Both the position numbers and the translations under genes were made by a program. The notes under the pieces are model-generated. The model saw nothing but the letters and a program-made list of their open reading frames with translations, had not been told where the DNA came from and ran no database searches. DNA of 40,126 nt from a candidate division WOR-3 bacterium. GTDB lineage: Bacteria; SDB-A. This document shows positions 2,119 to 40,126 of this stretch, piece by piece; within the stretch, counting starts at the first letter, position 1; each line of letters starts with the position of its first letter. Location: NCBI GenBank assembly GCA_016934535.1, contig JAFGSQ010000070.1, forward strand, positions 1 through 40,126, written 5' to 3'.

Positions 2119-2227
2119 CTTCGTGGAACCATAACAACAAAACAAGAGATATCCACCACGAAGGAACAATTGACTACAATTGTTCTTCACGAAGGGGAAA
2201 TTGTATACAATTTCCCTACACGAAGGG
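2119..2227. repeat. 31-bp-period hairpin tandem with CTTCGTG heptamers
   Basis: This fills the spacer between uvrB and gcvPB (1951-2259). The octamer CACGAAGG occurs at 2157, 2188 and 2219, an exact 31-bp period, and an inverted copy CTTCGTGG lies at 2119-2126. Between the octamers are two stem-loops in the same register. At 2164-2185 the arms are GAACAATTG and CAATTGTTC around ACTA; at 2195-2216 they are GGGAAATTG and CAATTTCCC around TATA. The three arm positions that differ change on both sides, so pairing is kept. The function is unknown. No T-tract follows on the minus strand, so these are not standard terminators. Confidence 0.85.
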
Positions 2228-2259: not shown

Positions 2260-4263
2260 CTAACTACGACCGGCGATTATTTCCTTGAGTTTTTTTACTC
2301 TGTCCCTCAAAACAGCCGCCCTTTCGAACTCCAATTCTTCCGCCGCTTTTTTCATCTCTTTTACGAGCCCTTCTATCTTTTCTATTAGATCTATCCTGCT
2401 CATGCCTTCGGTCGGCTCTTCGGGATAGCCGCCCGCAGGTTTTTTCTCTCTGACCTCGGCAATGGACGTCGCCGCCAGTATTTCTTCACGCGTCTTGACT
2501 ATGGATTTCGGGATTATCTTGTGCTCCCTGTTGAAACCTTCCTGTATCTTTCTTCTCCTTTTTGTTTCTGCAAGTGCTCTCGCCATGGAATCCGTTATCT
2601 CGTCGGCGAAAAGAATTACCTTGCCGCAAAGATTTCTCGCGGCTCTTCCCGCGGTCTGAACCAGGGAAGTTTCGCTCCTGAGAAAACCTTCCCTGTCGGC
2701 GTCGAGTATCATGACAAGACCGACCTCGGGGAGATCGAGACCTTCTCTAAGGAGGTTGACGCCGACAATGACGTCGAAATCCCCGAGCCTGAGCGACCTC
2801 AGTATCTCAACCCTGTCGAGTGATTTTATCTCCGAATGAAGATAAGCCACTCTCATGTCTTCCCCCTTAAGAAAATCGGCGAATTCTTCCGCGGATTTTT
2901 TTGTCAGCGTCGTTATTATTACTCTTTCACCTCTGCCGACTGTTTCCTTGGCTTTTTCGAGTATAACGTCTATCTGTCCCTTTGTTGGACATATTTCGAT
3001 AACGGGATCGACGATACCCGTCGGCCGCGCAATCAGTTCGATCGTGTTTTTCGGCCCGGCTCTTTCTCTCTCATAAAGCGCGGGCGTGGCCGACATGTAG
3101 AGAGTCGTCTGAGCAAGCTGTCTGAATTCTTCGAACTTCAAAGGCCTGTTGTCGAGAGCAGAAGGCAGGCGAAAACCGAATTCGATTAGAGTTTCTTTTC
3201 TCGACCTGTCTCCATGCTCCATTGCCCTTATCTGGGGAATGGTCGCGTGCGATTCGTCAATTACTACCAAAAAATCATCGGGAAAGTAATCTATCAGACA
3301 CCAGGGTTTGGATCCGAGAGGTCTTCCGGACAGATGCCTCGAATAGTTTTCTATACCCTGGCAGTATCCGAAGTTCTCTATCATCTCGATGTCCGATAAA
3401 GTCCTCTGCTCGAGTCTTTGCGCTTCAAGGTCTCTTCCTGATTTCTTGAAATATTCCTTCCTCTCGGCCAGCTCAATCCTTATACTTTCGATGGCTTTCG
3501 GTATGCTGTCTTTTTCTATAAGATACTGTTTTGCGGGGAAAATCACCGCTTCATCGGTCTCACCCGCCGTCCTGAAATCCGGATACGAAATGACGTTTAT
3601 TTTGTCTATGCCGTCGCCGAAGAATTCAAATCTCAGGAACTGTTTTGTTTCATAAGCGGGATAGACGTCCATGACGTCGCCTTTTATTCTGAACGTACCC
3701 GGTCCTGTTTCAATTTCGTTTCTCGAGTAATGAATGTCTATCAGCTTCCTCGCGAATTTCTGCGGAGTCAGTTTTTCTCCTTTTTTGAGGACCAGTGTCC
3801 CCGCTTTGAATACTTCAGGGGAGCCGATGTTGTAGATGCAGGAAACCGAAGCCACAACAATCACGTCCCTTCTCGACACAACGGAAGCCGTGGCTTTGAG
3901 GCGCAAACGGTCTATCGCCTCGTTTACGCTGGCGTCTTTGGCTATGTATGTGTCGGTCTGGGGAAGATAGGCTTCGGGCTGATAATAATCGTAGTAGCTT
4001 ATGAAATACTCCACGGCGTTGTCGGGAAAAAAGCACGAGAGTTCTGCGTATATCTGAGCGGCGAGTGTCTTGTTGTGTGATATAACGAGGACAGGTCTTT
4101 GAATATTTTTTATGACGTTTGCGAGGACGAACGTTTTGCCGGATCCTGTCACGCCGAGCAGAACTGCTTCTTTCCTGCCGCTGTCAAAAAGATTTGTGAT
4201 TTCTTCTATCGCTTTCGGCTGGCCTCCGGTCGGTTTCATTTCTGCTGTCAAATTGAATTTCAT
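2260..4263 (-). CDS. uvrB: Excinuclease ABC subunit B
   Basis: UvrB is the damage-verifying helicase-like subunit of nucleotide excision repair; it is loaded by UvrA and recruits UvrC. The product is 667 residues. It has Walker A GVTGSGKT at residues 37-44, the beta-hairpin region around YYDYYQPEAYLPQTD, VIDESHATIPQ (motif II region), a C-terminal helicase domain with VGVNLLREGLDLPEV and QTAGRAARN, and a terminal UVR coiled coil. I chose the ATG at 4263 rather than 4305 because AGGAG precedes it by about 8 nt and MKFNLTAEMKPTGGQ is the usual N-terminus. It begins 4 nt after the stop of the upstream membrane-protein gene, so it is probably the last gene of that operon. Confidence 0.97.
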   Translation of the reverse strand: MKFNLTAEMKPTGGQPKAIEEITNLFDSGRKEAVLLGVTGSGKTFVLANVIKNIQRPVLVISHNKTLAAQIYAELSCFFPDNAVEYFISYYDYYQPEAYLPQTDTYIAKDASVNEAIDRLRLKATASVVSRRDVIVVASVSCIYNIGSPEVFKAGTLVLKKGEKLTPQKFARKLIDIHYSRNEIETGPGTFRIKGDVMDVYPAYETKQFLRFEFFGDGIDKINVISYPDFRTAGETDEAVIFPAKQYLIEKDSIPKAIESIRIELAERKEYFKKSGRDLEAQRLEQRTLSDIEMIENFGYCQGIENYSRHLSGRPLGSKPWCLIDYFPDDFLVVIDESHATIPQIRAMEHGDRSRKETLIEFGFRLPSALDNRPLKFEEFRQLAQTTLYMSATPALYERERAGPKNTIELIARPTGIVDPVIEICPTKGQIDVILEKAKETVGRGERVIITTLTKKSAEEFADFLKGEDMRVAYLHSEIKSLDRVEILRSLRLGDFDVIVGVNLLREGLDLPEVGLVMILDADREGFLRSETSLVQTAGRAARNLCGKVILFADEITDSMARALAETKRRRKIQEGFNREHKIIPKSIVKTREEILAATSIAEVREKKPAGGYPEEPTEGMSRIDLIEKIEGLVKEMKKAAEELEFERAAVLRDRVKKLKEIIAGRS

Positions 4264-4267
4264 CCTG

Positions 4268-6043
4268 TCATCTCCTGATTTTTCTTTCCGCCAAAAACCA
4301 CGCAAATATCGCCGCTGCGCATATCAGCATAGCCACGGGAAAAAAGTCGTGAATAAAAATCTTTTGCACTGATTCCGTTTCAGTGTGACGAAGCGAATTT
4401 GTGAAAGAGTCCAGATCCAAAACGGACGCGTTTATCAACCGCACAGCGAGACTTTCAGGCACAAATCTTTCTTCGACCGTAAATACAGCTGAATCCACAA
4501 GATCGAAGATTCCGGCTTCGATAAGGTGAGTCCCTTCTTTGACGCCCGTCAGAAAATAATGATGAGTTTCGCCGTCTTTTCCCGCAGGAGATACTTCTCT
4601 GCCGTCGATCTTGACCTCCGGCATTTCCGGGGAATCAATCCAGAAATAAACCGCTTCGTCGGTGAAAAAACCTTTTTTTGGCAACGAAATCCTCAGCGAT
4701 TCAAATTGCCTGCTTTGAGTCCAAAGGACTACTGCTTCGAGAAATTCTTTCGCAAAATCTCTCGCCTCTCCTCCGTCAAAATACCATTTTACAAGGCATT
4801 GAGACGGCATCGTCAACAAAAAACAACCTCTCCTGCTCTCCACAGAGAGAATGGCTTCAGTACCGGACCCGATAAGAACGGTTTTGCCTGAACCCGGGTG
4901 AATCGAAGCGTATGCTGTTACTCCGGACAAAACGAGCCTTTCTGTAAGTTCGTGTTTTTTTCCCATATCGGTTAAAAAAATTATCTCTGGTGTAGCGCCG
5001 CCGGGCGTTCGTCTTTCTTTTACGAGCCAAAAGACAACCGAGCCGTTTCTCCAGTTATAGCGGCTTTCGAACGGGTTTTCGCCGGAAATCCACAGGACTA
5101 GCGAGTACTTTTGAGGTTCGAACTCTGTTTTTACGGCTCTTTCCAGGCCGTCTTCAAAAACAAGCGAACCTTCACCGAGACCTTCCGTATAAACCGACAA
5201 ATTCACCCGAAAATTCCCTGCGAGCAATCTTCTCGCCGAAGCCACCGCCGGATCCGGTTCAGAAGCATAAATAACGGCCTGAACTGCGTTTTCTCCGGCG
5301 CAATAATCGAAATGGCCGCTGTCCATGGATGTCGCAAAAACCATTCTGTGATTCCCTTTTGCTCTCTCATAAACAGTGTAAACAAAGCTTTTCGAAGCGA
5401 ATGGCTCAAGTTCTGTCATTATGCTGTCGGTTATAATTCCGTCTCTTGAAACAAAAACAGTCTCCGAACAGAATGGCCCAGCGTTGGATAAGGTGACGAC
5501 AACGCTCACGGTGTCTCCGGGAAGAATTCTTTCCGTACCGCCTGTGACTGACAAGAATGTCCTCTTTTCAGTCTTCAGAAGAAAAACGAGTGATTCTGCC
5601 GAAAGAGCGACATCCGATGAAAAAGCGTCCAGAGGGAACTTATCCGCCAATACAAAAATCTTTCCTCTGAAAATTCCTTCGGCTTTGGAATACACAAAAA
5701 GAGATTTTGGAGTTATCACACCTGAAAAATCCGTTTCCTGTTTAAATTCAGCGAAAGATAAAAAAGTGTCTTCGCCAAAAAAAAATATCCTGTCTTCACC
5801 GAATGCTTTTATTAAAGAATCAGAATATTCGAAAAACAGATCCTTGTTCCGGGCGTCGATGAAAAGAACGGGAAATATTTTTATCTTTTCGGTTTTTTTG
5901 AAAATTTTCCCGGAAAAAATTATAGTTGAAATGACAACAAAATACAAAATCGCCCTGACGGCGAATTCCGGATTAAATTTCCGGTTAACCGCCAATGAAG
6001 CCGCGATTGAAAACAAAAAGGCGGCGGCAAAATAAACGATCAT
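4268..6043 (-). CDS. Large membrane protein with extracytoplasmic beta-rich region
   Basis: The 591-residue protein is of unknown function. Residues 1-20 and about 28-46 form two N-terminal transmembrane helices, and about 566-585 (ending WFLAERKIRR) form a C-terminal one, leaving a large, probably periplasmic, region. Around residues 160-230 a segment (DTVSVVVTLSNAGPF) resembles a CARDB/Ig-like strand domain. The arrangement of paired N-terminal helices, Ig-like part and C-terminal helix resembles BatA/aerotolerance-associated membrane proteins, but no MIDAS or VWA motif is visible. The start ATG overlaps the stop of nothing upstream in frame, while its 5' end overlaps the preceding lipoprotein gene by 4 bp (ATGA). 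uvrB follows after 4 nt. Confidence 0.85.
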   Translation of the reverse strand: MIVYFAAAFLFSIAASLAVNRKFNPEFAVRAILYFVVISTIIFSGKIFKKTEKIKIFPVLFIDARNKDLFFEYSDSLIKAFGEDRIFFFGEDTFLSFAEFKQETDFSGVITPKSLFVYSKAEGIFRGKIFVLADKFPLDAFSSDVALSAESLVFLLKTEKRTFLSVTGGTERILPGDTVSVVVTLSNAGPFCSETVFVSRDGIITDSIMTELEPFASKSFVYTVYERAKGNHRMVFATSMDSGHFDYCAGENAVQAVIYASEPDPAVASARRLLAGNFRVNLSVYTEGLGEGSLVFEDGLERAVKTEFEPQKYSLVLWISGENPFESRYNWRNGSVVFWLVKERRTPGGATPEIIFLTDMGKKHELTERLVLSGVTAYASIHPGSGKTVLIGSGTEAILSVESRRGCFLLTMPSQCLVKWYFDGGEARDFAKEFLEAVVLWTQSRQFESLRISLPKKGFFTDEAVYFWIDSPEMPEVKIDGREVSPAGKDGETHHYFLTGVKEGTHLIEAGIFDLVDSAVFTVEERFVPESLAVRLINASVLDLDSFTNSLRHTETESVQKIFIHDFFPVAMLICAAAIFAWFLAERKIRR

Positions 6044-12956: not shown

Positions 12957-12990
12957 TCAAAAAGGCGGAACATGTTCCGCCTTTTTTTTT
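12957..12990 (+). terminator. Rho-independent terminator of the lipoprotein gene
   Basis: A near-perfect palindrome, arms AAGGCGGAA and TTCCGCCTT around CATG, runs into ten T residues (12981-12990). It sits 20 nt after the stop codon of the plus-strand lipoprotein gene. An almost identical copy follows at 13067-13094. Confidence 0.95.
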
Positions 12991-13066: not shown

Positions 13067-13094
13067 AAGGCGGAACAGTTCCGCCTTTTTTTTT
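13067..13094 (+). terminator. Second copy of the lipoprotein terminator
   Basis: AAGGCGGAA and TTCCGCCTT pair around a CAG loop and are followed by a run of T residues, so the orientation is plus strand, as for the first copy 105 bp to the left. No gene on the plus strand lies between them. On the minus strand only TTAT follows, so it would not terminate the convergent 2H phosphoesterase gene well. It may act as a fail-safe terminator, or simply be a by-product of the local duplication. Confidence 0.85.
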
Positions 13095-39739: not shown

Positions 39740-40126
39740 TCTTCGGAGGGTTTGATCCTGGCTCAGGACTAACGCTGGCGGCGTGTCTTAGCCATGCAAG
39801 TCGAACGGAAACCAATCTTGACGCAAGGATGGATTGGTTTTAGTGGCGTAAGGGTGAGTAACACGTGAGTAAACTACCCCCAGGAAGCGGGATAAGCCGG
39901 GGAAACCCGGTCTAATACCCTATGACAACTCTTGAAGGCATCTTCGAGAGTTTAAAGATGGCCTCTGCTTGCAAGCTATCACCTGAGGATGTGCTCGCGC
40001 CCCATTAGCTAGTTGGCGAGGTAACGGCTCACCAAGGCAATGATGGGTAGCCGGCCTGAGAGGGTGAACGGCCACACTGGCACTGAGACACGGGCCAGAC
40101 TCCTACGGGAGGCAGCAGGCTAGAAA
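39740..40126 (+). rRNA. rrs: 16S ribosomal RNA, 5' part
   Basis: GGGTTTGATCCTGGCTCAG, the universal 27F region, begins at 39748. The 16S landmarks ACACGTGAGTAAACTACCCC, GGGGAAACCCGG and CTCCTACGGGAGGCAGCAG (338 region) follow, and the gene runs off the right edge after about 387 nt. The 5' end at about 39740 is set by homology and is approximate. The sequence can be used for phylogenetic placement. Confidence 0.98.

What the first reader, a model, noticed from the sequence alone, without database searches (positions are those of the whole stretch)
2119..2227. 31-bp tandem of covarying hairpins bounded by CTTCGTG heptamers
CACGAAGG repeats at exact 31-bp steps (2157, 2188, 2219). The two stem-loops between the copies have different arms (GAACAATTG/CAATTGTTC versus GGGAAATTG/CAATTTCCC) but identical register. 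All three differing arm positions changed on both sides, so pairing was preserved. That suggests selection for structure in RNA or cruciform DNA rather than simple sequence duplication. An inverted heptamer closes the array. It sits in the 3' spacer of uvrB and 5' of gcvPB.
Basis: seen in the sequence. Interest (0 to 1): 0.62.

Follow-up and report, generated by a model that had tools for sequence, protein, structure and literature searches.

The report
Dispersed intergenic hairpin repeat array
The three CTTCGTG copies with two matched hairpins are one copy of a scattered, probably mobile DNA repeat found only in this little-known bacterial genus, and similar but simpler repeats flank a poorly understood nuclease-like gene in many unrelated bacteria.

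Summary
Read on the minus strand, window 2225-2141 is CTTCGTG-TAG-hairpin-CTTCGTG-AAG-hairpin-CTTCGTG-GTGGATATCTCTT. It is not a local duplication. It belongs to a family found in many intergenic places of this genome and of two congeners, and not convincingly in other genomes. Across 18 distinct 31-nt units the 9-bp stem is 97% paired and 6 of 9 pairs show double changes (double-change cells: 0/500 shuffles as high). Both congeners keep uvrB-gcvPB synteny but lack the array; two more spacers are empty in one congener, and two are occupied by different arrays. Elements are modular: left arm (AATTTCTACCACGAAG...), a short palindromic centre, right arm (...CTTCGTGGTKGATATCTC), with interchangeable hairpins bounded by CTTCGTG. 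In one congener a GxxExxY (PD-(D/E)XK) gene sits where the centre should be. In unrelated genomes GxxExxY genes are likewise flanked by inverted 8-10-nt tandem arrays, often ending GTGGTNAA. Best explanation: a solo right arm of a miniature, non-autonomous, REP/BIME-like mobile element whose hairpins act in DNA. Mobility, the enzyme and any RNA role are inferred, not shown. It is a new variant of a known kind; the GxxExxY link is the most interesting lead.

The parts
2219..2225 (-). first CTTCGTG anchor (5' in array direction), followed by TAG
2195..2216 (-). hairpin 1: 9-bp stem GGGAAATTG/CAATTTCCC, 4-nt loop TATA
2188..2194 (-). second CTTCGTG anchor, followed by AAG
2164..2185 (-). hairpin 2: 9-bp stem GAACAATTG/CAATTGTTC, 4-nt loop
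2141..2163 (-). third CTTCGTG anchor with the family's right-arm end CTTCGTGGTGGATATCTCTTGTT
   Evidence: about 20 similar ends in G000 at <=1 mismatch; list
2119..2125 (+). inverted heptamer 31 nt beyond the third anchor; may be chance or a degenerate left-arm start
   Evidence: single occurrence within chance; not preceded by the usual left end ATTTCTAC
2260..4305 (-). uvrB, transcribed toward the array
   Evidence: syntenic in L082 and L083
520..1950 (-). gcvPB, downstream of the array

Best explanation
The array is the solo right arm of a miniature, non-autonomous, intergenic mobile-DNA family specific to this genus. A full element has a left arm (AATTTCTACCACGAAG, then hairpins each closed by CACGAAG), a short palindromic centre (TATAAAATTTG..CAAATTTTATA) and a right arm (hairpins each closed by CTTCGTG, ending GGTKGATATCTC). 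Shown: a dispersed modular family, kept pairing, presence/absence at orthologous spacers, and one element whose centre is a GxxExxY gene. Inferred: the hairpin plus CTTCGTG is a DNA-level recognition unit, folded when single-stranded, for a trans-acting enzyme that copies or inserts it; arrays grow or shuffle unit by unit; copies without cargo are the MITE-like partners of gene-bearing elements.
For: Family of 31-nt and 30-43-nt hairpin units with constant anchors in G000, G001 and G002. Covariation and 95% Watson-Crick pairing in 52 distinct hairpins. Empty orthologous spacers: uvrB-gcvPB in G001 and G002, C56 and C52/C55 in G001; C10 and C19 occupied in both genomes but with different content. 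87 nt identical between G000 and G001 element copies while uvrB/gcvPB orthologues are 72-75% identical at DNA level. GxxExxY gene between left and right arms in L071. GxxExxY flanks elsewhere: inverted repeats in 21/25 against 4/22 far-flank controls, 8-10-nt tandem period in 21/50 flanks against 0/48, GTGG-type tail in 16/26 against 1/26.
Against: No mobilising enzyme is identified; G000 has no TIGR04256 or IVP gene now. No exact target duplication was found. The 87-nt identity is at contig ends of draft assemblies, so a shared assembly node or mis-binning cannot be excluded. Loss in relatives is as possible as gain in G000. Only one GxxExxY-in-element case was seen in this genus.
Confidence: 0.6

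Rival explanations
1. An RNA element: transcribed hairpins at the 3' end of uvrB mRNA act as a processing site, stabiliser or weak terminator.
For: Array is co-directional with uvrB and gcvPB; strong fold z = -4.4; slight G-T over A-C excess on the CTTCGTG strand, 13:6.
Against: No intrinsic terminator at the array. Congeners lack it at this locus. Arrays at C10, C19 and C73 lie beyond terminator-like hairpins with T-runs. Full elements contain both orientations.
Confidence: 0.15
2. Selfish or neutral palindromes kept perfect by replication-fork template switching (quasipalindrome correction) and multiplied by slippage and recombination, with no enzyme and no selection on structure.
For: Covariation alone cannot tell selection from correction. 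A chimeric unit at G000:C61:3586 carries the left arm of one hairpin and the right arm of another, showing module exchange at the loop.
Against: Does not explain dispersed intergenic placement with shared ends, the constant anchor outside the stem, or the exchange of the centre for a gene.
Confidence: 0.15
3. A GTAG-class REP/BIME family mobilised by a RAYT (Y1 HuH transposase).
For: The first unit reads GTAG directly 5' of a 9-bp stem; units lie in inverted and tandem clusters between genes; one Y1/RAYT-like gene is in the genome.
Against: The tag is GTAG in only about half the units (otherwise GAAG or GCAG). The RAYT-like gene at C32:4798-5118 has no array beside it and the C63 piece of G001 holding its homologue has none. 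Head-to-tail arrays are rare in REPs (PMC3733652).
Confidence: 0.1

Closest known systems
GTAG-tagged REPs, BIMEs and REPINs with RAYT transposases (PMC3733652, PMC3116915)
   Same: short intergenic palindromes with compensatory stem variants, tetranucleotide beside the stem, clustered and inverted arrangement
   Different: invariant 7-nt CTTCGTG anchor between units, head-to-tail 31-nt tandem units, GHAG tag, long AT-rich ends, no RAYT next to arrays
Bacterial MITEs
   Same: small, AT-rich, inverted ends, dispersed, no coding capacity
   Different: ends only partly alike, no target duplication seen, variable number of hairpin modules, no partner transposase found
23S rRNA intervening sequences with S23/four-helix-bundle protein (PMC4990558)
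   Same: gene flanked by inverted repeats, suspected selfish element; IVP genes in the genomes sampled here are also flanked by inverted short tandem arrays
   Different: IVP arrays have a 7-nt period and other sequences; the window array is not in rRNA and has no IVP gene
Integron cassette arrays
   Same: structured repeats between small toxin/antitoxin-like cargo genes (MNT-HepT, Fic, GxxExxY in L071 and L074)
   Different: no integron integrase or attC site was sought here; anchors are 7 nt and hairpins stand alone

Membership tests
GTAG REP / RAYT | unpaired GTAG tag at one end of the stem | tested here: inconclusive
   of 23 units about 10 are GTAG, 11 GAAG, 2 GCAG, and the last G pairs; PMC3733652 allows degenerate tags
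GTAG REP / RAYT | RAYT gene flanked by the repeats | tested here: not met
   only Y1/RAYT-like gene in G000 (C32:4798-5118) has no array nearby; G001 C63 piece has none
GTAG REP / RAYT | intergenic, clustered, in opposite orientations | tested here: met
MITE | terminal inverted repeats | tested here: inconclusive
   left AAATTTCTACCACGAAG and right CTTCGTGGTTGATAT are only partly complementary; window copy has the right arm only
MITE | insertion polymorphism at orthologous sites | tested here: met
   empty spacers in G001/G002
MITE | target site duplication | tested here: inconclusive
   no duplication seen by eye, but flanks are diverged and boundaries not exact
Known RNA family (Rfam) | match above gathering score | tested here: not met
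Intrinsic terminator | G+C hairpin followed directly by a T run | tested here: not met

The most novel reading that the evidence does not exclude
Inverted arrays of short anchors around GxxExxY (and, with another period, IVP/four-helix-bundle) genes are the ends of an unrecognised class of mobile element spread over many bacterial lineages. The window array is a gene-less, hairpin-enriched derivative of that class, and the Cas4-like PD-(D/E)XK protein acts on the arrays.
Probability: 0.3. Interest if true: 0.8.

Novelty: new variant of a known kind. Interest (0 to 1): 0.52.

Why it matters
If the link holds, two very common gene families of unknown function (GxxExxY and four-helix-bundle/IVP) would gain a testable role as parts of, or passengers on, mobile elements with tandem-repeat ends, and many unexplained short repeats in environmental genomes would have an origin. 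The genus studied here is useful because its arrays carry sequence-variable, structure-constant hairpins, which separates recognition of shape from recognition of sequence.

Tried and rejected
Local chance duplication: rejected. A feature specific to uvrB/gcvPB: rejected. Occurrence of the 31-nt form in other phyla: 5 genome-collection hits, about the chance number by my own estimate, four without a hairpin and one (L088, Desulfoluna) with a hairpin-like stretch; 12 viral hits without the family's layout, most in coding-like sequence; no plasmid match and one weak 24-nt phage match. RAYT partner: not supported. IVP gene in own genome: none. Prior description: ten text searches, four of them by sequence or family name, found none; only open-licence papers are held. 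Solved structure of GxxExxY: none by sequence.

Full report
The array is as described. CACGAAG occurs at 2157, 2188 and 2219 with two 9-bp hairpins between the copies. Read on the minus strand, the direction of uvrB and gcvPB, it is CTTCGTG TAG [hairpin] CTTCGTG AAG [hairpin] CTTCGTG GTGGATATCTCTTG. In 3000 dinucleotide-preserving shuffles of the spacer, evenly spaced triples of any heptamer arose four times and never with stems in both gaps. The single inverted heptamer at 2119 is within chance.

It is a member of a family. CTTCGTG-N24-CTTCGTG with at most one mismatch occurs 11 times in the own genome (76 contigs), 8 times in G001, 4 times in G002, both of the same genus; the reversed control pattern gives 0, 0 and 1. 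Right ends CTTCGTGGTNNANAT occur about 20 times in the own genome at <=1 mismatch. The full catalogue shows a grammar: CTTCGTG anchors separated by interchangeable hairpins giving steps of 30-34, 38-39 or 41-43 nt, or by 4-nt spacers (10-nt step, TTCGCGTTCATTCGTGTCAATTCGTGGTTAA), ending in GGTKGATATCTC or GGTAGAAATTGTATT. Many copies carry a left arm in reverse orientation, a centre TATAAAATTTG..CAAATTTTATA and a right arm. The window copy is a right arm alone.

Pairing is kept. On 18 distinct 31-nt units the stem is 96.9% paired, six of nine pairs have double changes, and 30 cells are double-changed against 9.3 in shuffles (0/500) and 2-5 with slid partners. Over 52 distinct hairpins of all classes the stems hold 512 Watson-Crick, 13 G-T, 6 A-C and 7 other cells. 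A chimeric unit in G000:C61 joins arms of two hairpin types. These data show that pairing is maintained; they do not separate selection from hairpin-templated correction.

Presence is polymorphic. uvrB and gcvPB are adjacent in G001 and G002 too, but their spacers lack any array. With 1.33 Mb of G001 fetched, two further own-genome sites (C56:57.3 kb; the junction of C52 and C55) match short empty spacers in G001, while C10 and C19 are occupied in both genomes by different arrays. Copies at the ends of C37 and C52 are identical over 87 nt to the start of G001:C28, although uvrB and gcvPB are 72-75% identical at DNA level. These are contig ends of draft assemblies, so a shared assembly node is possible.

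Cargo. In G001:C28 (L071) a GxxExxY gene (TIGR04256, E 5e-45; PF13366) lies between a left arm and a right arm, in the place of the centre. It has weak similarity to Cas4. In G002:C12 (L074) a MNT/HepT pair and a Fic gene lie between or beside arrays. I then asked whether GxxExxY genes in unrelated genomes have such flanks. Of 25 loci, 21 share 9-mers between the downstream flank and the reverse complement of the upstream flank, against 4 of 22 far-flank controls and 29% of cross-locus pairings. Tandem periods of 8-10 nt occur in 21 of 50 flanks against 0 of 48, and a GTGG-type tail in 16 of 26 against 1 of 26. IVP genes (TIGR02436) show the same layout with a 7-nt period: inverted repeats 24/29 against 8/29, period 7 in 23/59 against 3/59. 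The pattern for the tail was chosen after looking at these flanks, so its ratio is descriptive; the inverted-repeat and period tests are less exposed to that.

Mechanism. I favour a DNA-level mobile element whose hairpin-plus-anchor units are recognised by a trans-acting enzyme, with gene-less copies as MITE-like derivatives. The RNA reading is weaker: no terminator at the array, arrays at other sites beyond terminator-like hairpins, both orientations within one element, and no conservation at this locus. RAYT mobilisation is not supported, because the one RAYT-like gene has no arrays next to it.

Comparison with known kinds. The closest are GTAG REPs and BIMEs (PMC3733652) and MITEs; the defining RAYT association fails, so I do not file it as a RAYT-REP. 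Relation to 23S rRNA intervening sequences (PMC4990558) is by analogy only. I found no earlier description of these arrays, but the library holds only open-licence papers. My recollection that TTCGTG/CTCTGTG-type repeats are common in environmental genomes is a lead; the measured figure for one exact form is 5 of 241 sampled genomes, three of them from the window genome's own family, with 0 for the control pattern.

Noticed in passing
L121-L180 (GxxExxY and IVP loci in unrelated genomes): Both gene families are flanked by outward-facing inverted short tandem repeats, with periods of 8-10 nt for GxxExxY and 7 nt for IVP; the sequence differs by genome, the layout does not.
   Followed up: partly
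L105-L120, handle G185: Ten solo arrays of the type TTCGTGNAAATTCGTGTTAATTCGTGGTTAA in one unrelated genome; the G185 loci L114, L116, L117 and L119 also show CTCTGTG..GTGGT-type tails nearby.
   Followed up: partly
G000:C61:3586 (minus strand): Chimeric hairpin unit: left arm ATGGATTG with right arm CATTTTTT, loop TTTA shared by both parent types.
   Followed up: partly
L057 937-1863, minus strand: 308-aa Y1 transposase with a RAYT-like domain (54.8 bits, below the NCBIfam cut-off of 80) and a weak DnaA C-terminal-like stretch; not flanked by repeats.
   Followed up: partly
L074 1212-1830: MntA-like/HepT-like gene pair between two complete hairpin elements.
   Followed up: partly
window 12959-12986 and 13067-13087: Two nearby perfect inverted repeats sharing AAGGCGGAAC/GTTCCGCCTT; not examined.
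   Followed up: no
window 39740-40126: The contig ends inside a 16S rRNA gene.
   Followed up: no
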